Assembly (NCBI GenBank): GCA_019096065.1
Contig: JAGUCH010000007.1
Coordinates: 1,324,501 to 1,388,500, forward strand
Reading direction: 5' to 3'
DNA: 64,000 bases
DNA from: Paracyclopina nana
Lineage: Eukaryota; Arthropoda; Copepoda; Cyclopoida; Cyclopettidae
Positions within the stretch are counted from its first letter, which is position 1. The number at the start of each line of letters is the position of its first letter. This document shows, piece after piece, positions 40,561 to 62,215 of the stretch. The notes under the pieces are model-generated. The model did not search any database and was not told the DNA's origin. It saw only the letters and a program-made list of their open reading frames with translations. A program made the position numbers and the translations under genes.

Positions 40561-40925
40561 TCAGCCAATTTTGTGCCAATATTTACCTAATCTGGGCATT
40601 TTCAGCCAGTTTTGGTATATTCAGCCAATTTTGGGACCATATTAACCCAATTTTTGGATTTTCAGCCAATTTATGCTTTTTAGCCAATTTTTGCACCTTT
40701 AGCCAATTTTGACACAATTTAGGCATTTTTAGCCAATTTTGGCATTTTCAGCCAATTTTACATGTTCTACTAATTTTCGGCATTCTCAGCCAATTTAGGT
40801 ATTTTGAACCAACTTTCAGCCAAAATTATTGGTCCCCATTTTTCTAGCATCTCAACCAATTTCTGCATTTTTGCCCCATTCCAGCATTTTTGCTATTTTC
40901 GGCAATTATTGCTAATTTTTGCACC
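40560..40925. repeat. AGCCAATTTTGGCATTTTC repeat, about 20 bp, diverged
   Basis: About fifteen spaced or tandem variants of CAGCCAATTTTGGCATTTT, more diverged towards the right edge. Confidence 0.75.
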
Positions 40926-40927
40926 TT

Positions 40928-41540
40928 AAAGGGGATGTCTCAAAATCGGGATTTGGCGCGCGGGATTTCTCCGCATGTACATTAGGTCAGTAGTGAGGCT
41001 GCTTCAGCAGCTCGCTAAACTTCGCTTCTGTCCTCTTATGCATATGTGGAGAAATTTTTTGCATTCATAATATTTCTGGTCGACCAAATTTCAGTTTTTA
41101 TGCCTTTTTTAAGGTAATTTTTGCATTCATGATATTTCTGGTCGACCAAATTTCTGTTTTTAGGCATTTTTAAGCTATTTTTTGCATTCATTATTTTTCA
41201 GGTCGACCAAATTTCAGTTTTTAGGCCTTTTTAAAGCTATTTTTGCATTCATGATATTTCTGGTCGACCAAATTTCTGTTTTTAGGCCATTTTCAGCCAT
41301 TTTTTGCATTTTTGACCCAATAATTTAGGATATTTCTAGTCGACCAAATTTCAGTTTCTGGGCCTTTTTCAGCTACTTTTTGCATTTATGATTTTTCCAG
41401 TCGACCAAATTTCAGTTTCTAGGCCTTTTTCAGCCATGTTTTGCATTTTTTATTTTTCCAGTCGACCAAACGCTACTGTCCTCTTATGCATATGTAGAGA
41501 AATCCCGCGCGCCAAATGCCGATTGTGAGACATCCCCTTT
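40928..41540. mobile_element. Terminal-inverted-repeat element carrying a ~61-bp tandem array
   Basis: Ends AAAGGGGATGTCTCA...GGGATTTCTC are inverted at 41490-41540; the arms match over ~50-70 bp and contain TTTGGCGCGCGGGATTTCTC. The left arm is followed by a second inverted copy of its inner part (TCCTCTTATGCATATGTGGA at ~41033). The interior is seven copies of a ~61 bp unit containing GTCGACCAAATTTCAGTTT (at about 41079, 41141, 41202, 41263, 41339, 41400 and 41461). No coding capacity, no clear target duplication, superfamily not assigned. Confidence 0.8.
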
Positions 41541-43157
41541 CCGGGGAATCAGTATTATGCCAATTTGGCAATTTTTGCAATCATAAGTATATCAAGACTA
41601 TTTGTGCCATTTATTGCTTATTTTTTTCTGATTTAAAGCAATGCCTAACCAGTTTGGAATATTTTTCTCATCTTTTATTGCTTGTTGAGACGAATTTACA
41701 GCGAAGGAATTTATGGGGTTCATTTGAGAGCATGGAAACTTTGCATGGTCACGATTCTTCTTGATGATGATGATGCATCATCATTCCCAGCCTTTTTTCG
41801 GCCCAAAAAGAAACCAATTGCAATCAAATGCCAGCAATGACATACCAAAATATTCAAGTCAAAAGCTTGAAAAAACATTTTTGAATGGATTTTCTTTTAT
41901 TGCAATAATTTTAGTACTTTCAATTTTTCTTGGCTAAAAAGTAAATAAATGCATAAAAAGTTTGCTTTTGGCCTCTTTTTGATGTAAAAGCATGAAGAAA
42001 GTTTTGCTATGGTCAAAAGTTTGCTCATTATTTGGGCAGCAAAAAAAAGGGAAAAGTTGTCTGATGCAATTACTTTCATACCATGCTTCTGGAAAAAGGC
42101 CATCAACGATGCTCTCCATGCATAGGTTTCTACTTTACTAGATTAGGCATCTTTGGCCTCTTCTATGAAAAACATTTGAAGGCTTGATTGACGTGAGTCG
42201 TGTTTATATGCCATGAATCGTTTATCCAGGAACATCAATTTTTTTGCAATCTGCTTTTCTTTTTTCCTTAACTATTTTTTCTTTTAAACATTATCATCGT
42301 AGGAATTTAGGAGAGATTTTAGTGTTGTTGAACTTATGTTTTAGTTGTGGAAGAGTTTTTGAATTTGTGTTTTGTGGAATTTCAGTTATGTGGAATTCGA
42401 GTTTTTTGGGATTGAAGTTTCTGGAATTTGAGATCTGTAAAATTTGAGTTTTGTGTAATTTAAGTCTTGTGAAATTGCGTTTTGTGGATCTTGAGTTTTT
42501 GTGAAACTTGAGTTTTGTGGAATTTAAGTCTTGTGAAACAGAGTTTTGTGGTATTATACATTTTTATAAGGAACTAGTGTTTTGAGGGGTTTTAGTTTTG
42601 TGGAACTTGAATTTTGTAGAGCTTGAGTTTTGTGGAACTTGAGTTTTGTGGAACTTGAATTTTGTGGAACTTGAGTTTAGTGGAATATTAGCCTTTTGGA
42701 TCTTTTTTGTGGAATCTAAGCCCCAAGTTATATAGAACTTCAGTTTTTAGGCTGAATATTTTTAAAAAAAAGTTTCTATTTTTTGGGGATTGCTGCATAT
42801 TTTGAACTCTGCTAGCCAAACCTTAAAAATTGCATTCTTAGTAATGAATAAGTAGCTTTGAAGCTGAACTGTTTGGCAGCATTTTTTGTCAACCTTCATC
42901 TGTCTTTATTTAGTTTTGAGTGATTAACGAGACATTTCTCATTCAGCTCACTGTGAAAGGAAGGCTCAACTCTTTTTCTTTCCCACCAGAAAATCCATCA
43001 TCATCACTTTTCTAGCTGTTGTTGGCATAAATTATTATAAGCATCAACAGTTTCACGTACATGGCTGAATTTGGCATGAAAAGAGCCAAATATGTCCAAA
43101 AATTGCCAAAAAGGGTCAAATCCTAATTTTTTCCTCCCTTATTGAAAAGACTGAAAT
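41541..43157. other. Spacer with a 16-bp repeat
   Basis: No gene seen. 42360-42720 is built from variants of TTTGTGGAACTTGAGT (period about 16-18). The rest is AT-rich. Confidence 0.5.
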
Positions 43158-43161
43158 GATG
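43158..43161. other. Target-site duplication, left (GATG)
   Basis: GATG directly left of the 3' LTR, repeated at 57055-57058 directly right of the 5' LTR. Confidence 0.8.
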
Positions 43162-43398
43162 TATGATGAAATGGAGGTGAAGAACTGGGTTCGAACAGTT
43201 TTATGAGTAGAAGAGTGATGAAACGGGTTTGAGTATACTTTATTTGCTAGGGTGAAGTGAGCGAAGCAAACTTTAGCATACTGAAGCAGAAATGCAGGTA
43301 GAAGTAACATATACCAACGGCGTGCGCGTAGAGCCAAAAAAAGAGAGATCGGGCGTCGTGACCTACTTGTGGTCGTCGTCTGGTTCCATTTCTTCATA
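43162..43398 (-). repeat. 3' LTR of the retroelement
   Basis: 237 bp. On the element's strand it starts TATGA and ends TCATA, a short inverted repeat in place of the usual TG...CA. Same length as the 5' LTR and, read side by side, no difference found. It is preceded on the element strand by a run of six G. Confidence 0.92.
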
Positions 43399-43403
43399 GA
43401 TAT

Positions 43404-43409
43404 CCCCCC
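43404..43409 (-). other. Polypurine tract of the retroelement
   Basis: GGGGGGA on the minus strand, 5 bp before the 3' LTR, in the position where plus-strand priming starts in LTR elements. Confidence 0.65.
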
Positions 43410-43510
43410 GGAAGAAGAAGCTAGCCTTCCACGATGAAGGCTAGGACCAGTCAGGTATGATTGAAGAAATGAATCACGACGTCTATAATAATGTGATTTT
43501 TCCAATTTAG

Positions 43511-43999
43511 GTGTCGATTTGCATTGCCTATGTCGATCTTCTTATGATGATCCATCGTTTGCCCATGGACGAACTGGGGAATGGCGATGGGGTAGACCAG
43601 AGAAGTGTCAATTTTAGGTTGGAGGCCGCATCAGTGGTGAATACGTTGAAAAGGATCATTTTGTCGTTGAAAAGGAGACAGTACGAGGAGGTATGCCGGT
43701 ATTTGAAGAGATCACCAATATTCAGGAGAAAAGTGCGGAGGGCTCTTGAGAAGAATCTTCACATTGACTTGTCATATTTCCGTGATCTGGTTTTAGAGGA
43801 CTCCAACCAAATAAGGGCAGCGTCATCTTCAAAATCCGGATCAGGCATTATGATGGAGACAAGAGAGAGTCTTGAGATTACTATTTCAAATATGGGTGAT
43901 GAAGATGACCAAGTGGAAGCTGTTTCCAGGGAAGTCATGTTGTGTGATGAAATATCATTAGAGTATGATACTTTTGAGAATGAGAAAGATGATGAGTAA
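43511..43999 (+). CDS. Opposite-strand frame 1 in the LTR element, unknown
   Basis: About 160 residues, no family recognised. Basic middle part (LKRRQYEEVCRYLKRSPIFRRKVRRALE) and a strongly acidic C-terminus. No membrane span. Runs against gag-pol. It is the frame closest to the 3' LTR and could in principle be read from antisense transcription starting in or near that LTR. Confidence 0.5.
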   Translation: MSICIAYVDLLMMIHRLPMDELGNGDGVDQRSVNFRLEAASVVNTLKRIILSLKRRQYEEVCRYLKRSPIFRRKVRRALEKNLHIDLSYFRDLVLEDSNQIRAASSSKSGSGIMMETRESLEITISNMGDEDDQVEAVSREVMLCDEISLEYDTFENEKDDE

Positions 44000-44068
44000 A
44001 TCGTTAGTGATGTTTTTGGGCTGATCTTCTCCATGTGGACTTATTGTAGATTTCATTGTGGGCTGGTA

Positions 44069-44596
44069 TTAAAACCTGTTTCTTGCTTCATGTCGGGCGA
44101 GTCCTCTTTGGCGGTTAGTAGTGGAGTTTCCCCTGAAGGCAAGCCCGTAAAGTTTCTGTACTGTGTCTTCAATGGACTTCAATCTGCTTAATTCATCAAT
44201 GTCCAGAATGAGTTCTTCAATTGAGTGCGGTTCACAAATGAAATTGATCTTTTTGATTGACGAATCCATAAGGAAGTGAAAATAGTTATTGCAGAAAGAG
44301 TAGTTGATGATGATGCGACAAAGTGTTCCGTGATATTCTATGGTTGAGTTTGATGAAGCTTCAACAAATGTCACTAAATTGAAGGCTTTCAAGATTTTAG
44401 AGATGCCAATGGTCACATGAATGATTTGAGTTTTCTTCATTTTTCTTAATGAGATAATTTTGGCCACGATTGTAAACGCTCCAATGATCATGCAAATGAA
44501 CGAGGCCAAGGTAAGCCATGTTTGCATGATTAGATTGGTGCTTTCGAGCAATAGTTGCAAAAGATGCATCTTTGTCTGGTAGCTGTTGTCAGGCAA
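44069..44596 (-). CDS. Small element-strand frame with one hydrophobic segment, unknown
   Basis: About 175 residues on the same strand as gag-pol, last such frame before the 3' LTR. One hydrophobic span near residues 30-45 (WLTLASFICMIIGAFTIVAK), then a hydrophilic domain. No family recognised. Confidence 0.4.
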   Translation of the reverse strand: MPDNSYQTKMHLLQLLLESTNLIMQTWLTLASFICMIIGAFTIVAKIISLRKMKKTQIIHVTIGISKILKAFNLVTFVEASSNSTIEYHGTLCRIIINYSFCNNYFHFLMDSSIKKINFICEPHSIEELILDIDELSRLKSIEDTVQKLYGLAFRGNSTTNRQRGLARHEARNRF

Positions 44597-44888
44597 CTAG
44601 CTTGAATTCGGCTTAGGAGTGCACGTATAGCTGAACAGACTTGTGGTGGCAACAGGTGAAGTCAGGAGTGTGGACCTGTAGCGGGCTGAATGGGCTGTAT
44701 TAACCTGTCTCTTGCATGAGGTTGAGAAGCAGGGACATGAGGTCAACTTTTTTGGGTAGCATTCATAAGCCAGGTCATTCGAATTTTCATTCCCGGTCAG
44801 TCACCATTACGGTTTTTTGCGGAGTCTTTGTCAAGGTAAGTTACACTTTAGCATTTTCTTCAGGGCTGTGGAAACATTTGATTCGTAG

Positions 44889-45377
44889 ATGGCTGATTTC
44901 ATAACGGAGCTTATTGCCCATGGCCTCCAATTCTGGATGGCCAACGATTCTAGTCAAGAAGTAATTCGCCTTTTGAAGAGATTCCTTGTGGATTTGGAGG
45001 CGTTGACGGAGGCTGCGTCGGGCTTGTCACCTCGTCTAAGGGCTCTTTGGGTCCTTGCCATGGCCATTCTGGCCTTGGCATCACTTGACTATCGGATGGC
45101 ATGGCGGGATTACTATGGAGGGCCAAGTAGAGTGGAAGCTGGGAGATGGCGACGAAGACTTTTGAGAAGGCTGATCTTGGCACTGATTGGCATCGTTATT
45201 GGCCTGGCTGGAGGCCTTGCCAGCCTTTTCTATGGAGTCCTCGTCTGGTCAGGGTCAACCAGGCGATACGGATTGATGGCTATGGTGTTGATGATCCTGG
45301 TGGTGTCACAAACCATGTCCTATTCGCCACCAGTTTCTCCATTCTGTTTCTTCTTCCCTCTTTTTCCTTTCTGTTAA
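44889..45377 (+). CDS. Opposite-strand frame 2, two membrane spans, unknown
   Basis: About 160 residues. Two to three hydrophobic spans (LRALWVLAMAILALASL; LILALIGIVIGLAGGLASLF; then GLMAMVLMILVVSQTM) separated by a basic segment RWRRRLLRR. Small integral membrane protein of unknown family, coded against gag-pol. Confidence 0.5.
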   Translation: MADFITELIAHGLQFWMANDSSQEVIRLLKRFLVDLEALTEAASGLSPRLRALWVLAMAILALASLDYRMAWRDYYGGPSRVEAGRWRRRLLRRLILALIGIVIGLAGGLASLFYGVLVWSGSTRRYGLMAMVLMILVVSQTMSYSPPVSPFCFFFPLFPFC

Positions 45378-45470
45378 GCTTTTGTAAATAGATGTTTCCT
45401 CAGCCTTTTTAAGTTTGCTAGTTTTGCTTTACTGTCAATCACTTTGTTTAATCATTGACTTTTCAGCGTC

Positions 45471-45725
45471 ATGTCGTCAGTTCAGCGTATGAACGAGTAC
45501 CGGCTCAGTAAGGTGGCATCGGAGGTCGGCGAGATCCGGAATGAGGTGTCCAAGTTTGTGGATCCGGATTGGCTTAAGGCTAATATGTGTCAGCCTGAAG
45601 AGGGTGTGGGGTCACTGTTGATTGGTGAGCTCGGTTTCTTGGTGGTGATGGTGTACATGGTCCTCGTCTTCCTCGTCTTCCTCGCGTACATGGTGTACGG
45701 GTTTTTCACTCGTAAAGTAAGTTGA
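45471..45725 (+). CDS. Opposite-strand frame 3, one membrane span, unknown
   Basis: About 84 residues: hydrophilic first half, then one long hydrophobic stretch (LGFLVVMVYMVLVFLVFLAY). Lies directly before frame 4 on the same strand, with splice-like motifs between them. Confidence 0.45.
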   Translation: MSSVQRMNEYRLSKVASEVGEIRNEVSKFVDPDWLKANMCQPEEGVGSLLIGELGFLVVMVYMVLVFLVFLAYMVYGFFTRKVS

Positions 45726-45763
45726 TATGAATTTTAAAGGCAGCTTTCACTTTCACTGTTCCT

Positions 45764-46375
45764 GTGTTCTTCAAGGCTCTCCGGAATGTGTGGCTTGACA
45801 TCTTTGTCAAGTTTTTGGCGGCTATGTTCTTCCCGTTGACGTTTGGACCATTTCTGGGGTATGTCTTTCATGACATGTGCGGGAAGGAGCGGTTGCCAGT
45901 GAGGCCGAAGCCTACTGAGGCCGCTCAAACGTTGGCCAATTTGGTGCGCGTGGTCTTGCCTTACTTGTTAGCCACGAACTTCGATGGGAATGACGCATTT
46001 GTGAGAGAGGTATTGTCTGGCGAGTACCTCTCTCTCGTTTTCCACCCGCCAGGCTCCACAGAGAGGACAGTGTTGGTCCGTGACCTCATCCTCCCCCGTT
46101 TGCCGAGATGGCCCGAAGATGTGGAGTCAGGTCAATCAAGTTGGCCTACCCCATCAGCACCTTTTGAGGATGTCAACCTCGAGGATGGCATTTATGATGC
46201 TGTCGGCGATAACGGCGAGGTAGTGGCCTCGGCTGGACTGGCCAGTAATGGCAATGGCGTCGTCGGTGACCAGGAGGGTCAAGGGCAGCAGCCCTTTCGT
46301 CAAGGGGGGCCTGGATTCTTCCAGCCAGGTTGCCCCAACTCCAATGGAAGTCCCGAGTCGGAGGATGGCCATTAG
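45764..46375 (+). CDS. Opposite-strand frame 4, unknown
   Basis: About 200 residues: a hydrophobic N-terminal part (KFLAAMFFPLTFGPFLGYVF), a central globular-looking part, and a Gly/Pro/Asn/Ser-rich acidic tail. GC content and codon use look higher than in the host spacer around it. No family recognised. Confidence 0.45.
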   Translation: MFFKALRNVWLDIFVKFLAAMFFPLTFGPFLGYVFHDMCGKERLPVRPKPTEAAQTLANLVRVVLPYLLATNFDGNDAFVREVLSGEYLSLVFHPPGSTERTVLVRDLILPRLPRWPEDVESGQSSWPTPSAPFEDVNLEDGIYDAVGDNGEVVASAGLASNGNGVVGDQEGQGQQPFRQGGPGFFQPGCPNSNGSPESEDGH

Positions 46376-46992
46376 GGCCAAGATGGCCCAAGAGAGGAGG
46401 TCAGCTCGAATGGCTGTCCTTTTACAGAAGAGGAAGCTTTAATCTAGTCACTTTGTTTAATAATTGTTATGATGTTAAGCCAGCAAATGACCAATATATG
46501 CCAATTACTTTTGAAAGGTGTGATGTGACTGATTTTTGAAGATTCCTTATAATTGACAGATTTACTTTCCTTATTATGGCGTCCTGAAGTAGGCCTGAGA
46601 TGACTTGTCAAAACATCAGCTGATAGATGAATGAGGATGAATTTTCCCACGGTCCACATGACAGTTGTTGTTGTTTACTAATCATCAAGCCGTGTGAATC
46701 GAGCAGTTATTTTTAAGGCTAATTTGGGAAAATTCTTGCTTTGATGGTTTTGATCATTTTCGAAGATTTTGCGAAAATATAATCAGAGAATGCCATTACG
46801 CCATCGAGGGCGCCAATTGGTGAGGATTTTGGCGTTTGGATCCATGGAGAATCAGGTTGGAAAATGAAGTGTCTAGATCGAGCTATTTTTCCGACCAACT
46901 TAATTTTTGTTGACATTTTCCTAAAGCATGGCAAAACAAAGTGATTTTGTTAATTTTATTCGAAAGTGGATGCAAGTGATTCCAAATGCATT
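46376..46992. other. Non-coding gap between opposing frames of the LTR element
   Basis: About 0.6 kb between the end of the opposite-strand block and the end of the second membrane frame; both converge here, so their transcripts may terminate in it. Confidence 0.4.
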
Positions 46993-48306
46993 TTAATCAG
47001 TTTTACACTGGGCCTTTTCAACTTGGGAGGCCGCAGTGACATCAGCGACGATTTTCTCAGTGGAAGAAGTGTTCACCTCAATGTTGTCGTCATTTTCGAC
47101 GTTGTTGCCGTCAGAATTGTTGTCATCAGCGACATGAACTTCAACTGCGGTTTCAACGTGAATAGTGGGAGTGTTGGGTAGAGTTGAAGGTGAGTTTCCA
47201 GGTTTTGGCATCATCTCCATGAGCTTGGCCTTTTTGTGCTTCATGGCCTCAAGTTTACGCTCGTTTTTGATAATGCTTTTCTCCACAGACTTTAAGATGT
47301 CCTTCGAAGGGTCAAGAATATCCTCGTCGAAGTTTTCATTTTCCATGGAGTCCTTGGCTTTCCTCATCTTGGTAAGTCGTACTTGGATTCTGGATCTCAA
47401 CTTTTTGTCTTGACGTTTCACGTATTTTCTAGCTCTGGTTCCAAGCTGTCTCAGAAGGAAAAAGTTGTTCTCTGAGCACTTATGAAGTAGATATGTGAAG
47501 AATGCCAAAGCCAGGAGGACTAAGATCGAGGTGGGGATGGTGAGCCACATCGTCAAGGTGGGATTGTTTCTCAGAGCGGTGTCGAATCCAGGGGTTCCAA
47601 TCAATTCGTCATAAATGGGGACCGTACCAGTCTTGACATCTTCTAGTGAGGCAATTGTAGCTTGGAGCTCAATGTTGAGGACCTTTTGATTGGATAGATC
47701 CTTTTGGAGGTTAAGGATTTCTGTATTGAGGCGTTCTTCTTGAGCTGACATGGTAATTAGCATATCCTCAACCTTGGATTTGGCATAATCATAGAGTTTT
47801 TCCAGGATGATGACTTTTCTTTGACAAGGGACATCACGGAGACCTTGATTGGGATTCAATCTGGATGAAGCATTGATCAAATCTTGAGAGGCCACACTTA
47901 TGTTTTGAAAAAGAGCCTCTTGCTCCTCAAGATCGGTGTCTGCCGTTGGATCCAGATAAGTAGATTTGTTATTCTCCTTCTCTTCTGTTATCATGGCAGC
48001 ATAGGTTGTTTGGCACTTGTCAAGTTGATCAGTCAAGGTGGTAATTTTGGTCTTCAATTCCTGGTTGTTTTCCTTGAGTTCAGCTTCGGATGCAAGACAG
48101 GTGGTTAGTCGTTGTTGATTGAGGACATAGTTGTTGAGGAATTCAATCTCAGAGATTGATTTGGCTTCTATGGCAGAAATCAATCTTAAGGTGATGACGA
48201 AGAATTGGAGTGGACTCATGTTGCTTCTTCTTGGTAGTAGATGAGACTGAGGTTTTGCAATTTGATAGTGTATCTTCTTCGTGCTTAATGTGCAATAATG
48301 GCTCAT
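46993..48306 (-). CDS. Second membrane-protein-like frame of the LTR element
   Basis: About 437 residues. An N-terminal hydrophobic stretch (PLQFFVITLRLISAIEAKS, signal-like) is followed by a long Glu/Lys/Gln-rich coiled coil, one membrane span (LTMWLTIPTSILVLLALAFF) and a basic then acidic cytoplasmic tail. This is the layout of a type I membrane protein such as an envelope-like or stalk protein. No known envelope family recognised. Confidence 0.6.
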   Translation of the reverse strand: MSHYCTLSTKKIHYQIAKPQSHLLPRRSNMSPLQFFVITLRLISAIEAKSISEIEFLNNYVLNQQRLTTCLASEAELKENNQELKTKITTLTDQLDKCQTTYAAMITEEKENNKSTYLDPTADTDLEEQEALFQNISVASQDLINASSRLNPNQGLRDVPCQRKVIILEKLYDYAKSKVEDMLITMSAQEERLNTEILNLQKDLSNQKVLNIELQATIASLEDVKTGTVPIYDELIGTPGFDTALRNNPTLTMWLTIPTSILVLLALAFFTYLLHKCSENNFFLLRQLGTRARKYVKRQDKKLRSRIQVRLTKMRKAKDSMENENFDEDILDPSKDILKSVEKSIIKNERKLEAMKHKKAKLMEMMPKPGNSPSTLPNTPTIHVETAVEVHVADDNNSDGNNVENDDNIEVNTSSTEKIVADVTAASQVEKAQCKTD

Positions 48307-48388
48307 TAAAATTGCTGTTGTGTTGAACTAGATGTAAAATGCTTGGCTATACTGTATTTGAAGGCGAAAAGTTGATGTTGCATATCCA

Positions 48389-50032
48389 TTAGTCATAGTA
48401 GGGGTGAATTTTGCTTGCTGCTTGAATTTCATCCTCACTTGTGTAACAGGAATAGTTGCTGTGTCTCCTGGGATCAATACTATGGACATGAGCAACATCA
48501 ATCACTTTTACAGATCTTTTGGCTCTTGGGCTTCTTCTTGGTGGTCTTGAAGGTTTTGTGTTATCCATTTGTTTCTTTGATTTTGAATCTTGAGTCACAA
48601 AATAGACATCACTTTTATCATTTTCCCCCTCGCTTGAAGAGTCCTTTTTTGATGGGAGAAAAGTGGCCATTTCAGTTTCATTACGATTGGTAGTTTTGGG
48701 ACTCGCCTTGTTGGCAGGTACTTTAAAAGCAACAAATCTTTTTCTTTTATGGCACATAAATCCATCTTTCCGACAGCTTCTTATGACGAGGAAAAGGCTT
48801 GTGATCAAGGTGACAATTCCAGATATACCGCCTATGATACTAAATATAATATCCAGCACTTTAGGATTTGTATGTTTAGTGATCCAATCTGGCAGTTTTT
48901 CTTTTGCCTTATCAAAAATCTCAGTGATGTTGATTGATGGCTTATCAGCTGGAAGTGTTTTTATCACCTTTGGCCTTTTTGTCTTAGTGGGTATAGAGCC
49001 ATTAATAACTGTAGTAGGAGGGTTGATTTCAGCGGAGTTTTGTTTTTCTTCTTCATCACAAATGCAAATTTGGTTTCCATCCATAGATTTTGCACTATTA
49101 TCCAATCTCTGAATAATATTGTCCGCTGTGACATAATCATTCACTAGATTAGGAAGAAGGTCAAAGATCAGCTCCATATTGGGTGGAGTAGATTCTAGTA
49201 GATTCTTCACTTCTTGTAAAGGGTGGTCCAGAAAGAGTTCATCCACATTGCTTTCTTGATATTGATCGCACCAATCAGCTTGATTCAACTCTTGGATTAA
49301 CTCTTTTCCATTTGGGAAGTTGTCTTTGATAGTAGTGAGTTCTGCTGAGTAAACTTTTCGTAGGGAAGTGTACTTTTCATAATTGTCCGGAATGGCAGCT
49401 TCACACAGTGTCAAAGCTTGTCCGTTCCTGCAAGCCACATCTTCAATTACAAAAACAGTGTTGTCGTCGTAATTGTTTGGTACGACGATCCGATAGCACT
49501 TGTTTTCATCAAATGAAGTAGGCTTGACACTTAGATTCTCAACATTGTCTCCCCAGTATAGTGGAAATGGTTCACCGTCGAAGTAGTAGGAATCAGTTCT
49601 TTTGTCATATTGAAGATTTACCCAGATTTTCTTGTCATCGAATTTGAAGTTAGGTGGGTCTCTCACACCTGCCTCTATCTTCTTTAAAACAGATGCAAAA
49701 TCACCTTTGGGCTTGATGAAAGTCATCTTCTCGATCTCGCAGACCAATTTTGAAGTGGCAAACTTGTCTTGAACATTGATCAGCTTGTAAACTTTGTCGT
49801 TGACAATGCGACCTTTTGCAAAAGTCTCCACATCAGTAATTTGGTTCGAGATGGCATCAACTAGAGGCTCTAGGAGCTGATGTAGTTGATGGAGTGTTTC
49901 TGACAAGGACACAATGTTGTAAGCCTTGCAGAAGGGAGTGCTTGTCACACTCGTGTTGTGGAGCAGTGTTGCCAACGCCAAACTCCACAGAAGTTGTTTC
50001 ATCCTTGTACTCATAGTTGGGCTAGAAGTCAA
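48389..50032 (-). CDS. env: Envelope-like frame of the LTR element
   Basis: About 547 residues: a signal-peptide-like start (MKQLLWSLALATLLHN), a Cys-containing ectodomain of ~370 residues, a hydrophobic span at about 395-420 (IIFSIIGGISGIVTLITSLF) and a basic cytoplasmic tail. It sits right after pol, where Gypsy-type errantiviruses carry env. Assignment rests on position and topology; I recognise no specific envelope family. Confidence 0.6.
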   Translation of the reverse strand: MTSSPTMSTRMKQLLWSLALATLLHNTSVTSTPFCKAYNIVSLSETLHQLHQLLEPLVDAISNQITDVETFAKGRIVNDKVYKLINVQDKFATSKLVCEIEKMTFIKPKGDFASVLKKIEAGVRDPPNFKFDDKKIWVNLQYDKRTDSYYFDGEPFPLYWGDNVENLSVKPTSFDENKCYRIVVPNNYDDNTVFVIEDVACRNGQALTLCEAAIPDNYEKYTSLRKVYSAELTTIKDNFPNGKELIQELNQADWCDQYQESNVDELFLDHPLQEVKNLLESTPPNMELIFDLLPNLVNDYVTADNIIQRLDNSAKSMDGNQICICDEEEKQNSAEINPPTTVINGSIPTKTKRPKVIKTLPADKPSINITEIFDKAKEKLPDWITKHTNPKVLDIIFSIIGGISGIVTLITSLFLVIRSCRKDGFMCHKRKRFVAFKVPANKASPKTTNRNETEMATFLPSKKDSSSEGENDKSDVYFVTQDSKSKKQMDNTKPSRPPRRSPRAKRSVKVIDVAHVHSIDPRRHSNYSCYTSEDEIQAASKIHPYYD

Positions 50033-50090
50033 AGTAGAGTGTAGAGGTTATCATTCATCCATCATCATTTGTATCACATTTGTCTAATAT

Positions 50091-53000
50091 TCATTCTGCG
50101 AAATGTACAGTAGGTTCATATGGCATAGCTTGTTCATCTTCTTCATCATCCAGGAACATCTGGTCAATGATTGGAAGCTGAGAGTTGACACTTTGAGCTT
50201 TTTCTTGCTCCTTTAGTCTTTTTGATTCACCACGTGTCATTACACGGCCCTTTTCAATGGGCTTGAAAATGTCCTCATCGAAGAATTCGGGAGTCTTTTG
50301 GATTTCCATGTACGGTTCGAGAGACTCCAATGTGAAGTGTGATCCAAGCATGAATCTAACACTTAATGGTAAATTTCCATAGAGCTCAGCGAAGCGAGGA
50401 GAGCATTTCTTCAGGAGATTCTTGTGAGCAGGAAAGACAACTCCATTGAAACTTTTTAGAAGGCATGTGTTTTGCAAGTTCTTGAGGACCAGGTAAGGGC
50501 TCGTGTGATAACGTACCCAAATCTTTGGCTTTTCGTGTTTTCTCTTATCAAGCATGAAAACGTAAGTGCCAGGCTCATAGTTGATGTCTTTTCCAGGAAT
50601 CTTTTCTCTTGCTTGCTTTTTGAGCTGAGTGTTCTTATTGATTGCTTCTTGTATAATGGCGTCATGAGCTTTCTAGATGTCTTTGATAGTGCTTGGTTCG
50701 ACAATGTCCTTTTCTGTAACTGGTCTTAGTCTGTCGTGATCAACTCCAAAGTAAGCATAAATGGGGCTAATGTTGCCAATTCTTGGTGAGGGGCGAGTGT
50801 TCAAGGATAGTTGAACAAGATACAAGAGTTTGATCCAGGGTAGTTTAAGTTGATTGGTCAAAATCCGGATGAGGTTGCTGACTTGTTGAACTGCATTTTC
50901 CACAATTGAGTGAGCTTGAGGAGAGTATGGCATTGTCACATGTGGGTGGATGTCATAATACTCCAGAAGTCTTCTGACTTTTGATGAGGAGACAAGGTTG
51001 GAGGCACCATCAGAGATGAGGACTTTAGGTGGTGAAAACACTGCAATGATGTATTGTTCAATAATCTTGGCAATTTCGTCACCAGTCGCATTCTTGACGG
51101 GTACTATGATCTTGTAACCAGTAAAGTACTCAATCATGACAAGGATTTTGGAGCTTTTATAAAACTCAGGATAGCCTTCGAGGATGTCAATTGAAAAGGT
51201 ATGGCCTTTTGGTGATTCTCCATATGAGATAGGTTTTAGCTTGGCCTTTCCAAGTCGATTGGGTTTGGCGAGTTGGCAAAGATAACATTGGATTGTGAAG
51301 TTCAAAGCTGACTTAAATAACTTGGGATGATAATGAGTCATAGCAGCCATTCGTGCCAAGCTTGTTCCTCCTATATGACAATCCAAATGAAGATAGGCTA
51401 AAAGTACACCAAGAAGAGAATCGGGAATATAAATAAGGCTCCTTTCAGTGGATTGGTCTGGATTCTGAACAGTTTTGTATAGAACATTTTGTTCAAAAGC
51501 GAAGCCTTTTGGTGGATTTCTCCTCATTTTTTGAATATTGGCATCCTTTTCTTGTTCCATTGCGATGTTATCAAGAGTCAGCAGTTCAGCAAGTTCATGT
51601 TTTGGATTTTTCTTACCAATGTAGTTAATTTGGATCTTCTCCGGAATCGAATCAATGTAGGAAAAAGTCTTTTTAGGTTCTTTCTTGCGCGTCCCAAGCT
51701 TTTGTTCTCCATTGAACTTGGGCTCAAAACCTTCTTCATAGACTTTTTCTAGATATTCTTGGAGATCATTTAAAGTGACAACCTTACCAAGCTTGAACGG
51801 TGAAGTGATGAGAATAGGTTCTAGTTGACCATCATTTTGAACAGCTTTATACACTATGGGAAAGTTTCTAGTCATGGCATCTGCACACAAATTGTATTTT
51901 CCTTGGCAATGTAGGAAGATGCATTTGAATGGCATTGAGCTAATCGTGATGCACCATCTCACTAGCTTTGGAGGTGGATTTGGGGACAGCTTGGATGATT
52001 TGAGGATCCACAGAAGTGCCATGTTATCACCACAGACAAAAGTTGTCGGAACTCCATGAAGTAGATGAGCAAAATGTTCAAGTGATTTCACAAGGGCAAG
52101 GCATTCAAGTTCCAGAATGGTATATCTGGATTGCTGCTTGTTGAGCGTTGCACTGTAAAAACCCACAGGACAAATTATGTGTAATTTGTCCTTTTCCTGA
52201 AGATATGTAGAGATGGGTTCCAATTCGTCAAGTTCTTCATGTCTGATGTCTCTGATGAAGAGCTCTTCGTTGTTGGTTTTCAAGTTACTTTCATATTGCT
52301 TCAATGCTTCATCTATTGGTGACAGTGTTACCATTCCTGGATTATTTTTTCCAGATGGAGGGATGACTGGATGTTTTGTGTTCAATTTTGACTTGCTATC
52401 GAGGGATTCCTCTTGATAAAGTTCTTCATGCCATTTGGAGACTTCCTCCCTGGAGAAGGACTTGATCTGATAGCAATAGCCAGCGATGGCATTGAGGCTG
52501 CTGTCATAATGGAGATAGAGCGGTTCGTTATAGTTCACAAAGTACACCGTTGTAGAGTTGATAATGGCATTTTTAATATCGTCAAAGGCTTGATCTTGTT
52601 CGGTACCCCAGGCAAAGTCTTCATCTTTCCGTAAAAGTTTGGTGAGTGGCTTCAATTTTTCAGAAAAGGCATAAACTAAGTTAGCGTTCCATTGAGCCAA
52701 GCCGATGAAGGACATCAAAGTGTGTTTGTCCTCAGGCTTTTTAAAGTTCTTGACAGCAGACAAGTGTCGAGGAAGAATGGAAAATCCATTTTGGTCCAAG
52801 TGTTTGCCGAGAAGTTCGATGCTTTTTTGGGCAAACTGGAATTTTCTTGGTCGTAGTTTGATTCCAGCATTGTAAAGTGTTCTGAGTATGATTTTGGTTT
52901 GCTGAATGTTGAGTTCAAAGCTTTTTGAATAAAGACAGACATCATCAGAGTAGTTGCACACAAAGTTGCTCTTACACGGAGATTTGTCTGCAGTATCAAG

Positions 53001-54587
53001 GATGCGGCTCATGCAGTAATTGTAGTAGGATGGAGCATTAGAGAGACCAAAGATCATTCGAAGGGGAAGCCACTGACCTGAATTGGTGACAATTGCACAG
53101 ATCTTTTGTGCTCTCTCTGTCATGGGAATAGAGAGAAAGGCTGAAGCAATGTCAATGGTGGTGAAATATTTGGGATTGGCCAATGAGATTTCTTCGATGA
53201 TAGTGTTAATTGGCTTATAGGGGAACTTAACAGGTTTTGTAACCTTGTTCAATTCACGAGCATTATACACTGCTCTTAATGTTCCGTTCCTTTTTGTGAC
53301 CAAGAAACATGGCATGGCCCATGGTGAAAATCCTTTTTTCAGAACTCCAATTTTCTCAAGTTCAGCGAGTTGGTCAGCCAGTTGAGCTTCTCTGAGCGGG
53401 TCTAAGGTGTAAGGTTTGATGTAGACAGGTTTTTCAGTTGTAGTTTCTATGTCAAAGAAGATTTCAAACTTTTCATGGATCTTTCCAATGTCGGATTCAT
53501 GTGTGCTGAAAAGATTGGGTGTTTTCTTTTCGATGAATGATATGATGTCTTCAACTGCAGATTTATCGATGTGAGAATGATTATCACGAATAATCATTTT
53601 CCAGTCATCTTTTTCTTCTGTAGTCAAGCATGGGAATCCGGTTGGTTCAACTGTCTCTTCATCTATTTGCTTGGTGGCTTCATCCTCAGTGGTTACTTTT
53701 CCAATGATTTCATTGCAGGAAAGTGGGAATCTTGAAGTAGACTTGTTTTCCATGGTGGTAGTGAATTTTCCCCCTCTGACTGAAAGTGATCCAACTGTCT
53801 TTAAGGGTGATTCACGGGGAATTGACAAGCTATATTGGCCATCCGGAAGATCCAGAGTGCCAGTGACCTCATTTAATCCGGGTAGAACTTCGATCTCGTC
53901 CACTGAAACCCATGAGTCTAAGCCTTCCGGAGATGGCAGAGACTTTTGTTCAGATCTTTGCTCAAAGCTTATGATGAGGTTTGTTCTACCTTTTTGTTGG
54001 ATTATTTGAAGGTTGTGAGTGGTTATGAAATCTAAACCAAGTAGATTGCTTGAAGAGGCAATGAAAAATGTGTGCTTAAACTGAAATCCTTGTAGTTTGA
54101 AGGTTAGTTCGATTGGACACTGGTATTGTGGTATTTCATTCTTTTGGACATCGACCAATGTGAGTTTTTCATTAGAAAGGGAATACTTGTCTTTAGGAAG
54201 CTCTTGGAAAGTTTTGACGGAGAGAATTGAGACTTGTGCACCTGAGTCGACAGTGAAGTCGACTTTTAGGCCAAAGTCTGTTGTCAAAGCTGTTTTTAGA
54301 GGACTTTCGTTGATCACTGGAAGATCGAGTCCTTCTAAAATGATATCTGGAGTAAGAACTTTTGAGACTTGCGAAATTTCTTGATAGTCTAATGAGGATG
54401 CGATTTCCAAGGCAGCATCTGAATCTAACCAGTCAGGTTCGATTGAAGAGGAAATGGTGGGATTGTCATCATCTTCAGTGTCAATATCTGCGAGTGAAAT
54501 GTCTGAGAATGTGACTAATGATATTTCTTCTTTTACAGTTGCTGTATTTGGAAAGGGCCGAGCTAGTTTAAAGGAACTGCTCGACAT
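50091..54587 (-). CDS. pol: pol region of the LTR element (PR-RT-RH-IN)
   Basis: Protease with DSGAQVS; reverse transcriptase with VYNARELNKVTKP, YFTTIDIASAFLSIP, FGLSNAPSYYNY and the catalytic YSDD; RNase H with YLHYDSS and the later FVCGDNMALLWIL; integrase with HLDCHIGG...CYLC zinc site and the D, D, E residues in SIDILEG, ISDGASN and VENAVQQ. Integrase after RNase H places it with Ty3/mdg4 and not Copia elements. YSDD is an uncommon but allowed form of the RT Y-x-D-D box. Region end includes an integrase C-terminal-like stretch. About one break. The start overlaps the end of gag by about 25 bp, fitting the frameshift or read-through expression known for the family. Confidence 0.88.
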
Positions 54588-56455
54588 TGGTGATCAAGAT
54601 GGAAACCTTGCATGCATTTGGAGCATGCATTGAAGCTAGGAGTGGAGCTCTTGTAAATGCAATTTTCAGCGTTGAATCCACACAGTAAATGTCCACATCT
54701 CGCACAAGAAATAGAGATTCGTTCAAGAGTTTTCAAAGAGATGCGATACTTTCCCGGTTGAGTTTCAACAAATACTGGAAAGTCAATTGGCGCATTTTCA
54801 GGAATAATGCGTCCAAGATTGTCAAACTTGTAGGGAATTCGCGCATGTGGATCATCCAGCATCTTGAGCTTTGGGCCTCTCTTTCTGGTGTTTCGTTCAT
54901 ACGAATCGATTTCCATGAGAAGAACATTCATAAGAGGGCCTTTTTTGTCAAACTTGGCTGCTATTTCAGAAAATTTGGGGTCTGAAATTTTGTAGACAAT
55001 CAGCTTAGACTTTTGAGGTCTGTTGTATCCTCCCTTTTCGTTTGGGTAAGTCTTGGGCTGATTTTCGAGTGCAGCCACAGTTTTCATCAATAACTGGTTC
55101 GTTTCTTTCATTTCAGAGATGATTTGATTATTAGCAGCGAAATGGCCATTGGAGTGGTTGGAAGAACCGGTTTTTATGCTTGCGGTTGTGGTATGCTCAT
55201 TATTTATGGCTTGAGGGGCCGCTTCCAAGTTTTTTACTACCCTTTTTGTCATGGAAGGATGGGATGTAACCATGTTTTTGAACGTGTTCAAATCCATGGG
55301 TGGAACAAAGGGTGATATTTTTTGGAGTTCCGCAATCTTTGTCCGTTCAAGGTTAACTGCCTTTTGTACCTCTGAAGGCAGCTGGGGAATGACATGATCG
55401 ATAACTAACTTAGTCAAGGCGTCGTTCCTTTGTTCTGGGAAGGCCAAACGAGCCTTTTCGACTATCTTGGTTAGCGAGTCATCGACCTTTTTCGTGTCAA
55501 TTTTGGAGTCATAAAACTCGCACAAGAGTTCGTCTGGTCTCTTGCTGCAACAATAGCTCTCAAGGATTTCCTTGATAGCTTCATTAATATCATCATGACT
55601 CTTGAAAATGTTGGTGAAAGTGTCCTTGAGTTGAGAGTTAGTCTGGTGTATAATGAGGTTGGCAAACTGCTTGGCTGTTAGCTCGCCTGCGTGTCGCTCA
55701 GCCATAGCTTCAATAATGTGCCTCACATCTGGGCTTGCCTTGCTCAACCTTGGGAACTCTTTCAAGTTTTCTCTTTTTAGTTGGACAAAAAGCGCGTTGG
55801 ACTCTCTTGTATCAGATCCGGGAATGAAAGGGACGGTTTTCAGGCATGGAATTCTTTGCGTTTGGATGAGTTTTGGAATGAGTTGAAGGAAGTCGTTCCT
55901 GAGTTCTGCTGCGATAATATCTCGTTCCATTTCCACCCTGTTTTGGACTGAATTGTGACGAGCATATTCCTTCAGATCCTTAAGGGACTTTTCATATTTA
56001 TGAGTTTTCCCTTGGAGAAGGTTGCTAGTTCCATAAGCCAAGCTTTGGAAGAGTGGGGCTACTCCAGCATTGGCATGAGGAGATGGTGCTCGAGAGTCTC
56101 CTCTGATGGAGGATGCCACACTTGATCGGCAAGATCTTCTTGGCTCAGGTTGGTCTTGTGGAGGTGAGTCCGGAGATGGTTCCATGCGCTGTAGAATGGC
56201 CTTGTTTGACTCATGAACATCATTCAATGCTCTGGTGATGGTTGAGAAGCTGGTGTCGACGTTTTCTTGCATTTTGAGGAGGTTTCTCTCAAGCTTCTCA
56301 ATTTTCCTGTTGGTGGCAAGTTTTGCTCTGCGATCTTGTGAAACTTCATTTGGAGGCACGGCCATGCGAGCTGCAATGCCTAGTAGCTCGTTTTGTATGG
56401 CGTTCTCTAAAGTCTCTTCGTGGTGGTCATGATGATGAGCACCAGATTCAGCCAT
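54563..56455 (-). CDS. gag: gag of the LTR element
   Basis: About 630 residues. A coiled-coil N-terminal part (KLATNRKIEKLERNLLKMQE), a Pro/Ser-rich linker near 95-130, a helical capsid-like region at about 200-370, and a C-terminal Cys/His cluster (CARCGHLLCG then CSKCMQGFHLDHQC) that resembles a zinc-binding finger more than the usual CCHC knuckle. First frame after the leader. Confidence 0.8.
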   Translation of the reverse strand: MAESGAHHHDHHEETLENAIQNELLGIAARMAVPPNEVSQDRRAKLATNRKIEKLERNLLKMQENVDTSFSTITRALNDVHESNKAILQRMEPSPDSPPQDQPEPRRSCRSSVASSIRGDSRAPSPHANAGVAPLFQSLAYGTSNLLQGKTHKYEKSLKDLKEYARHNSVQNRVEMERDIIAAELRNDFLQLIPKLIQTQRIPCLKTVPFIPGSDTRESNALFVQLKRENLKEFPRLSKASPDVRHIIEAMAERHAGELTAKQFANLIIHQTNSQLKDTFTNIFKSHDDINEAIKEILESYCCSKRPDELLCEFYDSKIDTKKVDDSLTKIVEKARLAFPEQRNDALTKLVIDHVIPQLPSEVQKAVNLERTKIAELQKISPFVPPMDLNTFKNMVTSHPSMTKRVVKNLEAAPQAINNEHTTTASIKTGSSNHSNGHFAANNQIISEMKETNQLLMKTVAALENQPKTYPNEKGGYNRPQKSKLIVYKISDPKFSEIAAKFDKKGPLMNVLLMEIDSYERNTRKRGPKLKMLDDPHARIPYKFDNLGRIIPENAPIDFPVFVETQPGKYRISLKTLERISISCARCGHLLCGFNAENCIYKSSTPSFNACSKCMQGFHLDHQCRAVPLN

Positions 56456-56817
56456 TTTTGAACCTAATGTACGTGAAAGTAAGTTGTTGATAGGAAAGAA
56501 CTTCTATGCTCCGCCCAGATTGCCTTAAGGGCTTTGTTTGAGCTGTAAGTCACAACACGGGACTCTGAATTAAGGGCCTCTTTTAACTTATATGGGCGCG
56601 TAGCCGGAAGTGTCCTTTTTTGAGGTAGCTAATCTCGTCTAAGGCAAGGTTACCTTTATGGTTCAGATGGAGTGATGGAGCACTGTACGACTTTGTTGAG
56701 GGAGTCGATCCAAATTAGACTGGCTAGGTCTTCTTTAGATGATATTATTTCTCCCCCGCTTTGGAAAAAGCACTTCACTTCCACTAGTGATCTTGATTCA
56801 ATTCCGTGGGAGCCAAC
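56456..56817 (-). other. Leader of the LTR element with primer-binding site
   Basis: About 360 bp between the 5' LTR and gag. TGGCTCCCACGG on the minus strand (56804-56815), 2 bp from the LTR, starts with TGG as expected of a site complementary to a tRNA 3' CCA end; the tRNA is not identified. Confidence 0.65.
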
Positions 56818-57054
56818 TATGATGAAATGGAGGTGAAGAACTGGGTTCGAACAGTTTTATGAGTAGAAGAGTGATGAAACGGGTTTGAGTATACTTTATT
56901 TGCTAGGGTGAAGTGAGCGAAGCAAACTTTAGCATACTGAAGCAGAAATGCAGGTAGAAGTAACATATACCAACGGCGTGCGCGTAGAGCCAAAAAAAGA
57001 GAGATCGGGCGTCGTGACCTACTTGTGGTCGTCGTCTGGTTCCATTTCTTCATA
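56818..57054 (-). repeat. 5' LTR of the retroelement
   Basis: 237 bp, same termini as the 3' LTR and no difference seen in a base-by-base reading. Short for the length of the element. Drives the sense transcript in elements of this kind. Confidence 0.92.
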
Positions 57055-57058
57055 GATG

Positions 57059-57790: not shown

Positions 57791-58230
57791 ATAACCTACG
57801 TCACAATGTGAGTCAACTCCTGCTATTTTTGGCATCGTATTTCACATTATATGCTGCAGCTATCTCAATTTTGTGCCTTATAAGGCTCAAGTTATGGCCC
57901 TCAAAAAGTAATTAGGGAAGAAGCTTGGTATTTTTTTCTTGTCTAAAATTATGGCAACTTTTGATGTGGCTGAAATTAAACTCTCCTCCTTCGTCTTCAT
58001 CTTTTTGGGATGATGGAGAAAGCAAGGAAGGAGAGAAAGCCCGAGGTGTGTGGTTCCTATAGCTCGAGCCTCATATACATATACTACTTCTGCTATGCAA
58101 ACGTAAACGGAACATTATTTGATGACTTCTGCACAAAGCCATGCATACCCATCCACTCGTGGACTCGTTGGCCTTCCTTTCCTTGCTAAGATCGTTCACA
58201 ACTTTCCATTTAACTTTCTATCTAATTATG
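57790..58230. other. Spacer, nothing recognised
   Basis: AT-rich between two arrays of related sequence; no gene seen. Confidence 0.4.
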
Positions 58231-58700
58231 ACTTTCCAGCTGTTTAAGCTATCCTGATTTTCAGCTGTATGAGCTTTCCAGATTTTCAGCTGTATGAGCT
58301 TTCCAGATTTTCAGCTGTATGAGCTTTCCAGATTTTCAGCTGTATGAGCTTTCCAGATTTTCAGCTGTATGAGCTTTCCAGATTTTCAGCTGTATGTGCT
58401 TTCCAGCTGATCGAGCTTACCAGCCGTTTGTGCTTTCCCACTGTACTGCGATTCTGCGGTCTGAGCTTTCCATTTGTTAGAGCTGTCTTGTTATTTGAAC
58501 TTTCTGGCTATTAGAGCTGTACAGCTGTTTGAACCGTCTGAGCTTTCCATTTGTTTGTATTTTCCATAAGTCAGAACTTTCCATTTGCTTTGACTTGCCA
58601 TTTAATTCAGCTTTCCAGCTGTACTGCTATCATAGCTTCAGCTTTCTGAGCTGTCTAAAGTTTCCAGCAATTAAAGCGTAGCTTTGGCTTTCCAGTTGCT
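58230..58700. repeat. 25-bp minisatellite of the GAGCTTTCC family
   Basis: Six near-identical tandem units of 25 bp containing GAGCTTTCCAGATTTTCAGC at ~58243-58395. Diverged relatives run to about 58700. Shares AGCTTTCCA with the 57.4 kb array, so both may descend from one older repeat. Confidence 0.88.
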
Positions 58701-61900: not shown

Positions 61901-62215
61901 GTCTGAATTCTGAATTGATTCAACTCAAGTCTGAATTGAGTCAACTCAAGTCTGAATTGCGTCAACTCAAGTCTGAATTGAGTCAACTCAAGTCTGAATT
62001 GCATCAACTCAAGTCTGAATTGAGTCAACTCAAGTCTGAATTGCATCAACTCAAGCCTGAATTGCGTCAACTCAAGTCTGAATTGCGTCAACTCAAGTCT
62101 GAATTGCGTCAACTCAAGTCTGAATTGCGTCAACTCAAGTCTGAATTGCGTCAACTCAAGTCTGAGTTGCGTTTATTCAATTTTGAATTGAGTCAATTCA
62201 AGTCAAAAGTCAATA
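61900..62215. repeat. 21-bp minisatellite, TCAACTCAAGTCTGAATTG
   Basis: About twelve tandem 21 bp units; variation is concentrated at the last two bases (AG, CG or CA). Because 21 is a multiple of 3, frames stay open on both strands; these are not genes. Confidence 0.93.

What the first reader, a model, noticed from the sequence alone, without database searches (positions are those of the whole stretch)
43162..57054. Very large, apparently recent Gypsy-type LTR element coded on both strands
At 13.9 kb it is well above the usual 5-9 kb of Gypsy elements. After gag and pol it has two consecutive membrane-protein-like frames and then a ~3 kb block with four frames on the opposite strand. Two-way coding is rare in this group; antisense genes are known in a few retroviruses (for example HTLV-1). 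The combination may define an undescribed lineage.
Basis: partly seen in the sequence, partly recalled or inferred. Interest (0 to 1): 0.88.

Follow-up and report, generated by a model that had tools for sequence, protein, structure and literature searches.

The report
Animal retroelement with spliced antisense genes
A large, recently active virus-like jumping element in an animal genome carries, next to its usual genes, three extra genes read in the opposite direction, two of which show the mark of natural selection, an arrangement known from some plant and fungal elements and a few retroviruses.

Summary
The window carries a 13,893-bp LTR element (43162-57054, coded on the minus strand) with identical 237-bp LTRs, a 4-bp target duplication, gag, a Ty3-like pol and two membrane-protein frames. 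The genome search found 11 copies; 10 keep the whole opposite-strand block and the eleventh has an internal deletion. None of ten LTR pairs compared shows a substitution, although copies differ by about 1.2%.

The block is coding. The four opposite-strand frames resolve into three genes: A (two exons), B, and C (two exons), with GT-AG introns of host size. B and C vary mainly at third codon positions (38 of 56 sites, P=1.4e-7); A is not significant. A sense gene (S166) lies between A and B. Decayed relics of B and C lie elsewhere in the genome, in the same order at three loci, and C keeps its intron at the same position and phase, so the cassette appears older than this family. The introns could survive reverse transcription because the genomic RNA is the other strand.

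My searches listed none for an animal Gypsy element. Transcription and function are untested. New variant of a known kind.

The parts
43158..43161 (.). target-site duplication GATG (other copy 57055-57058)
   Evidence: read; 4-bp duplications also read in the other 9 copies compared there
43162..43398 (-). 3' LTR (sense orientation), 237 bp, ends TATG...CATA
43404..43409 (-). G6 run just inside the 3' LTR, purine-tract candidate
   Evidence: sequence read
43434..43454 (+). antisense gene A, exon 1 (7 codons, ATG start)
   Evidence: open frame and GT donor in 10 of 10 copies
43455..43510 (+). intron of gene A, 56 nt, GT-AG
43511..43999 (+). antisense gene A, exon 2 (162 codons; basic centre, acidic tail, no TM candidate)
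   Evidence: open in 10 of 10 copies; constraint not significant, P=0.12
44069..44569 (-). sense gene S166 inside the block (166 aa, one TM candidate)
   Evidence: pN/pS 0.09, P=0.0002, 18 of 23 variable sites at codon position 3; open in 8 of 10 copies
44836..44888 (+). candidate leader intron of gene B, GT-AG, 53 nt
   Evidence: upstream exon probably untranslated (one copy carries a stop there)
44889..45377 (+). antisense gene B (162 aa, 2 TM candidates, basic)
   Evidence: pN/pS 0.09 without the indel-rich copy, 0.35 with it; P=0.0004; open in 9 of 10 copies
45471..45716 (+). antisense gene C, exon 1 (82 codons, one TM candidate)
   Evidence: P=0.0018; open in 7 of 10 copies
45717..45775 (+). 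intron of gene C, 59 nt, GT-AG, same position and phase in two relics
45776..46375 (+). antisense gene C, exon 2 (199 codons; one TM candidate near its start, acidic tail)
   Evidence: P=0.0002; open in 9 of 10 copies; a relic matches it to its C-terminus
46993..48306 (-). ENV437: membrane-protein frame, one TM candidate near residue 256
   Evidence: no Pfam family reaches its cut-off; open in 6 of 10 copies
48389..50032 (-). ENV547: membrane-protein frame, TM candidate near residue 399, long tail
   Evidence: unnamed relatives at 98% and 56%; no Pfam family; open in 8 of 10 copies
50091..50555 (-). C-terminal part of pol (integrase tail), a separate frame in this copy
   Evidence: compared by eye with the tail of P0001; open in 8 of 10 copies
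50673..54587 (-). pol: protease, RT (YSDD), RNase H matched in two stretches, integrase
   Evidence: Pfam RVT_1 1.5e-18, RT_RNaseH 4.6e-15, rve 3.7e-7 just under its cut-off, protease families weak (0.02); Ty3 is the best solved relative, 6e-46
54563..56455 (-). gag, 630 aa, no CCHC family match
   Evidence: P=0.0002 for constraint; open in 6 of 10 copies
56806..56815 (-). primer-binding-site candidate, 2 nt after the 5' LTR
   Evidence: sequence; tRNA not identified
56818..57054 (-). 5' LTR (sense orientation), identical to the other

Best explanation
This is a recently active, envelope-type Ty3/Gypsy element with an ambisense layout. Shown by sequence: one strand encodes gag-pol, two membrane-type proteins (ENV547, ENV437) and a small membrane-type protein (S166); the other strand carries three genes A, B and C beside the 3' LTR, with conserved GT-AG introns in A and C and before B, and B and C evolve as proteins under purifying selection. 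[quoted passage not shown] Their introns persist because the packaged RNA is the sense strand, on which those splice signals are unreadable. Guessed: A is a soluble regulator (basic centre, acidic tail), while B and C are small membrane proteins that help assembly, exit or cell-to-cell transfer alongside the envelope-like pair.
For: 11 copies found; the block is full length in 10 of 11. No LTR substitution in 10 of 10 pairs compared and 4-bp duplications in 10 of 10. B+C variable sites by codon position 12/6/38, P=1.4e-7, in the 7 of 10 copies with all antisense frames open; a neighbouring non-coding stretch gives 4/3/5. Relocation test P=0.0004 (B), 0.0018 and 0.0002 (C exons), 0.0002 (S166), with the indel-rich copy left out. 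In one search each true frame has the lowest ratio of the six frames; the nearest rival at B and C, the wobble-mirrored sense frame (0.18-0.34), contains 6, 2 and 7 stops. GT and AG present in 10 of 10 copies for all three introns; two host TDP-43 introns are 59 and 61 nt (read). The C intron has the same position and phase in two relics (read). Relic pairs give dN/dS 0.13 and 0.14 for C, and 0.32, 0.28 and 0.52 for B.
Against: No transcript was seen: no RNA data are held. Gene A lacks significant constraint (P=0.12). No AATAAA or ATTAAA lies between gene C and 47000 on the antisense strand, only AATATA at 46493 and 46776. C exon 1 is broken in 3 of 10 copies. With the indel-rich copy included the ratios rise to 0.35 (B), 0.33 and 0.23 (C). 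None of the 8,000 candidates scored for C reached E 10, and A, B and C match no Pfam family at its cut-off, so the functions are guesses. In the relic at C7:5.62 Mb the ENV547-like and C-like fragments lie on the same strand, which does not match this layout and may be a rearrangement.
Confidence: 0.75

Rival explanations
1. The block is a host gene fragment (or gene pair) captured in antisense by the element's founder and carried as passenger DNA without function for the element.
For: Antisense capture explains retained introns; no viral family matches. Plant work lists transduction as one origin of extra frames (passages).
Against: Selection on B and C within the family, comparable to that on gag when the same copy is left out (observed against expected counts). 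B-C relics are collinear at three loci, as expected of a mobile lineage, and the genome searches with B and C showed no intact host copy that I recognised; one weak B-like hit among host genes (C7:1666346, 28%, E 0.014) remains open.
Confidence: 0.1
2. The B-C cassette is an independent mobile or viral unit that has inserted both into this element's ancestor and elsewhere.
For: Relics of B and C sit at five places without a recognisable pol of this family in the stretches fetched (other Gypsy pol matches at 18-29% do lie in some of them). Relic pieces over 50 bp are 73-89% alike.
Against: No repeats of its own were seen around the block; the relics are too decayed and the stretches too short (10 kb) to show their borders. 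An ENV547-like relic lies beside one C relic, which favours a related retroelement as the source.
Confidence: 0.12
3. The antisense frames are shadows of sense-strand constraint or chance open frames.
For: The sense frame whose third positions face those of the antisense frame also gives low ratios (0.18-0.34 at B and C). For gene A the contrast with other frames is small (0.36 against 0.45 for the next) and not significant.
Against: That sense frame holds 6, 2 and 7 stops in B, C exon 1 and C exon 2, so it cannot be the source; third-position excess P=1.4e-7; splice sites and relics support the antisense reading.
Confidence: 0.03

Closest known systems
Plant Retand / Grande / RIRE2 Gypsy elements with antisense extra genes
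   Same: [quoted passage not shown] in Retand the long region carries them in all clusters of recent elements (passages; section 5)
   Different: Retand antisense frames mostly encode TRP28 and its sense frames there lack transmembrane regions; the Grande protein is nuclear. Here an animal host, three genes, introns, two membrane-type antisense proteins, and two envelope-like genes
Fungal Boty (antisense brtn)
   Same: LTR element with an antisense gene before the 3' LTR (section 5)
   Different: One gene named there, fungal host
HTLV-1 HBZ / HTLV-2 APH-2 (deltaretroviruses)
   Same: Spliced antisense transcript from the 3' LTR (passages); gene A here starts 35 nt inside the 3' LTR and has an intron
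   Different: No bZIP or other Pfam match in A exon 2; Ty3-type pol; two further antisense membrane-type genes; transcription here unproven
Insect errantiviruses and other env-bearing animal Gypsy elements
   Same: gag, pol, envelope-type gene, short target duplications
   Different: No Baculo_F match in ENV547 or ENV437, though another family in this genome has one; antisense module
Drosophila MDG1-group elements with sORF2
   Same: Small accessory membrane protein in an animal Gypsy element, reported to serve cell-to-cell transfer (passages incl. abstract)
   Different: sORF2 has one transmembrane segment; B and C are antisense and no relation was tested

Membership tests
Ty3/Gypsy (Metaviridae) | pol order protease-RT-RNase H-integrase with Ty3-like RT | tested here: met
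   the protease match is weak (E 0.02) and rve is just under its cut-off (30.8 against 32.6)
Ty3/Gypsy (Metaviridae) | paired LTRs and 4-6 bp target duplication | tested here: met
Ty3/Gypsy (Metaviridae) | TG...CA LTR termini (usual, not universal) | tested here: not met
   ends are TATG...CATA
Ty3/Gypsy (Metaviridae) | gag CCHC zinc knuckle (usual, not universal; recalled) | tested here: not met
   no such Pfam match in gag
Ty3/Gypsy (Metaviridae) | RT falls inside named Ty3/mdg4 clades | tested here: inconclusive
   29-row tree without named animal clades; pairs with P0001 only
Errantivirus | baculovirus-F-like envelope | tested here: not met
   no PF12259 match in either frame
Troyka | 3-bp duplications and CG...CG termini | tested here: not met
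   4 bp and TATG...CATA (definition from abstract)
[quoted passage not shown]
   10 of 11 copies
Antisense-gene Gypsy elements (Retand-like layout) | TRP28 domain in the antisense protein | tested here: not met
   no Pfam family reaches its cut-off in A exon 2, B, C exon 1 or C exon 2
Deltaretrovirus HBZ-like gene | antisense transcript from the 3' LTR | not testable with these tools
   no RNA data
Deltaretrovirus HBZ-like gene | bZIP domain | tested here: not met
   no match in A exon 2, B or C

The most novel reading that the evidence does not exclude
An animal retroelement lineage with a true ambisense genome: an old, spliced antisense gene cluster (a regulator plus two membrane proteins) older than the split of two element families, working with a two-protein envelope system. 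It would be the first such case known to me in animal Metaviridae and a natural record that antisense introns can be inherited through reverse transcription.
Probability: 0.5. Interest if true: 0.75.

Novelty: new variant of a known kind. Interest (0 to 1): 0.62.

Why it matters
In the papers seen, antisense genes in LTR elements are mostly single frames of unknown function. Here selection, splice sites and an intron shared with relics of another family make a multi-gene antisense module testable with ordinary host RNA data. It would extend antisense coding from retroviruses, plants and fungi to animal Gypsy elements, and it suggests why such genes may keep introns when sense genes cannot.

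Tried and rejected
Nested one-off insertion: rejected, same block at the same place in 10 of 11 copies. Chance frames: rejected for B and C. Errantivirus and Troyka membership: features not met. Primer tRNA: a pattern for a tRNA with the matching acceptor stem gave 10 places on each strand against 4 in the reversed control; six of the ten share one repeated sequence, none was tested as a tRNA, and the primer stays unknown. IMG/VR scans with ENV547, pol and C exon 2 found no relatives. An N-terminal extension of B across the leader intron: doubtful, one copy has a stop there. A B-like hit at C7:1666346 (28%, E 0.014) was set aside: it lies among host genes by eye and may be a chance membrane match. 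A homologue of A or S166 in the relic loci L039, L040, L044, L045: no credible one (best E 0.026 over 17 residues). Host species was not identified.

Rows dropped: the copy at C1:13.08 Mb (L013, L023, L032) was left out and of the later sets, because it carries 25 small indels in the block. I take it for an unpolished assembly stretch, but it also has 125 substitutions against the window where others have 44-66, so true decay is not excluded. With it included, pN/pS is A 0.40, B 0.35, C 0.33 and 0.23, S166 0.10. L018 was also left out of the control frames. The ratios for gag and the envelope frames include all copies. One search used the 7 of 10 copies with all antisense frames open. The truncated copy at C3:9.80 Mb was in no alignment, and its LTR pair was not compared. 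The RT tree used 19 of the 25 pol hits plus 9 rows from this genome and the window.
Full report
Setting. The window is G000:C7:1324501-1388500 of a 92-Mb genome held in 10 contigs. Neighbouring genes match the TDP-43 N-terminal and transglutaminase N-terminal families, which by general knowledge points to an animal; the species was not identified.

The element. It spans 43162-57054. LTRs are 237 bp, TATG...CATA, identical in this copy, with a GATG duplication. On the minus strand lie gag (630 aa), pol, ENV547 and ENV437. Pol matches RVT_1 and RNase H families well, rve just under its cut-off and protease families weakly; its best solved relative is yeast Ty3. The RNase H family match falls in two stretches, as it does in the closest pol found, P0001, suggesting a shared insertion. 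P0001 is 34% identical over 99% of the 951-aa query region and comes from a JGI contig of unnamed origin. In a 29-row RT tree the window pairs with P0001 alone (100/100) on a long stem.

Copies. A 1-kb probe finds 11 copies of this end, 11 second LTRs, and one further LTR-like match at 80%. The antisense block is full length in 10 of 11. The eleventh, at C3:9.80 Mb, keeps 826 bp of it and 196 aa of ENV437, so it has an internal deletion. In ten copies (window plus nine) no LTR pair shows a substitution; one pair has two single-base indels (one search compared 236 of the 237 bases). All ten show 4-bp duplications by reading. Yet nine of these copies (the indel-rich one left out) differ by a mean of 1.18%, range 0.03-1.88%, over the block. 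So each insertion looks recent, from a source pool that is itself diverse.

The antisense genes. The plus-strand frames resolve with the splice signals visible. Gene A: exon 43434-43454, intron, exon 43511-43999. Gene B: 44889-45377, with a candidate leader intron just before its ATG. Gene C: exon 45471-45716, intron, exon 45776-46375. GT and AG are present in 10 of 10 copies at all three introns. Intron lengths of 53, 56 and 59 nt are close to two host introns of 59 and 61 nt in the TDP-43 gene (read). Frames are open in 10 (A), 9 (B), 7 (C exon 1) and 9 (C exon 2) of 10 copies. For comparison, gag is open in 6, ENV437 in 6 and ENV547 in 8 of 10.

Selection. Without the indel-rich copy, pN/pS is 0.36 for A, 0.09 for B, 0.15 and 0.13 for the C exons and 0.09 for S166. 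With all copies included the values are 0.40, 0.35, 0.33, 0.23 and 0.10, next to gag 0.26, ENV547 0.34 and ENV437 0.42. In one search's frame controls the true frame is lowest in each case; for gene A the margin is small (0.36 against 0.45), and one control ratio is undefined for lack of synonymous changes. Relocating each mutation at random among sites of the same base gives P=0.12 for A, 0.0004 for B, 0.0018 and 0.0002 for C, 0.0002 for S166, 0.0002 for gag, 0.0012 for ENV547 and 0.007 for ENV437. In the seven copies with all antisense frames open, variable sites in B+C fall 12/6/38 over codon positions 1/2/3 (P=1.4e-7), in A 3/6/7, in S166 4/1/18, in a neighbouring non-coding stretch 4/3/5. 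The sense frames opposite B and C contain 2 to 7 stops each, so they are not the source of the signal. The counts treat sites as independent, and copies share ancestry, so the P values are approximate. Gene A is open everywhere, but its constraint is not shown.

Relics. Searches of the genome with C exon 2 and B found diverged matches. A DNA search with the C3:1.09 Mb locus found further pieces at C3:5.76, C3:6.19, C7:5.62 and C8:6.74 Mb. They are decayed, with frameshifts or insertions. B and C relics are collinear on one strand at three loci (L039, L044, L045). C relics L039 against L038 give dN/dS 0.13 and 0.14; B relics give 0.32 (L039 against L040) and 0.28 and 0.52 (two parts, L039 against L044). 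So C at least, and B less clearly, was once selected as a protein there. Protein identity to the window is about 23-42%. In the C relics at C7:5.62 Mb and in L039 (apart from a repeat inserted there) the exon junction lies five residues before a WLD motif in phase 0, as in the window (read). I take this as the strongest evidence that C was a spliced gene before the families parted. Which way the relic block lay relative to its own pol is unknown. At C7:5.62 Mb an ENV547-like relic (26%, E 3e-10) sits beside the C relic on the same strand, which I cannot explain; the spot also holds an insertion of another family.

Other families here. The downstream sides of three other Gypsy families were listed (L053 with a second copy L056, L054, L055). 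L053 and L055 have pol followed by an envelope-type frame on the same strand: Baculo_F-like in L053, a Monjiviricetes-type fusion glycoprotein in L055. Opposite-strand frames of 130 aa or more do occur in these stretches (for instance L053:4943-5710 and L055:2125-2694). The L053 one has no counterpart in L056, and the borders of these copies were not determined, so this is a weak comparison, not a survey.

How it may work. The 3' LTR must supply or sit beside the antisense promoter, because gene A starts 35 nt inside it. Antisense introns would not be removed from the sense genomic RNA, so they pass through reverse transcription intact. This is inference from layout; the conserved junctions support it and no RNA was available. 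B has two transmembrane candidates and C has one in each exon; A exon 2 has none, with a basic middle and an acidic tail by eye. Roles in regulation (A) and in assembly or transfer (B, C) are guesses by analogy with HBZ/APH-2 and with sORF2 of Drosophila MDG1-group elements.

Literature. [quoted passage not shown] PMC11963269, passages) and antisense transcripts for retroviruses (PMC10186651, passages). Bdelloid rotifer elements with extra frames (PMC5408684, passages) mention antisense only for small RNAs in the passages seen. The annelid paper PMC8220671 gives antisense extra frames only as background in the passages seen. Troyka (PMC12440569) was seen as outline, abstract and passages. The searches listed no paper that I recognised as describing an animal Gypsy element with antisense protein genes; I judged by titles and abstract openings of the rows listed, and the library holds open-licence papers only, so this is weak evidence of absence.

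Verdict. The claim that two-way coding is rare in the group is too strong outside animals. The thing is a new variant of a known kind: a recent animal Gypsy element with a multi-gene antisense module that has conserved introns and, for two of its three genes, clear selection.

Noticed in passing
L055:4093-6582 and L038:2111-3991 (G000:C6 and C7): A Gypsy family found at 40 places (40 of 157 candidates scored) carries a Monjiviricetes-type fusion glycoprotein (PF24664, E 2e-75) downstream of an integrase, with a pol open frame of 1,493 aa at C6:6.805 Mb. A 2023 paper (PMC10084718, passages) found no clear evidence of such capture by Gypsy elements.
   Followed up: partly
L053:1760-3643: Another Gypsy family (C4) carries a Baculo_F-type envelope (E 6e-9), so this genome holds two recognised envelope types in Gypsy elements besides ENV547/ENV437.
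   Followed up: partly
G000:C1:13076280-13090216 (L013, L023, L032): This copy has 25 small indels in the block, all more than 1.4 kb from the block-side end, and more substitutions than the others, but no LTR substitution; perhaps an unpolished assembly stretch rather than decay.
   Followed up: partly
L037/L038, C7:5619358-5622346: ENV547-like and C-like relics on the same strand, the C relic flanked by 113-bp direct repeats 99% alike (C7:5620888-5621000 and 5622234-5622346).
   Followed up: partly
window 40560-42714, 58208-58432, 59557-59754, 22990-24198, 61891-63737: Many AT-rich tandem arrays of short units (16, 17, 25, 61 bp and others) around the element; some give long repetitive open frames.
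   Followed up: no
L039:6741-6869: A 129-bp repeat with 36 further places listed at 93-98% (40 of 183 candidates scored), many with an inverted partner beside them, inserted in the C relic; looks like a small DNA transposon.
   Followed up: no
L038:7847-9196 and 5640-7561: Frames of 450, 256, 213 and 224 aa without Pfam match near the glycoprotein-bearing element; possibly viral.
   Followed up: no
window 52941-52952: The RT active site reads YSDD rather than the usual YMDD/YIDD/YVDD (the usual forms are recalled).
   Followed up: no
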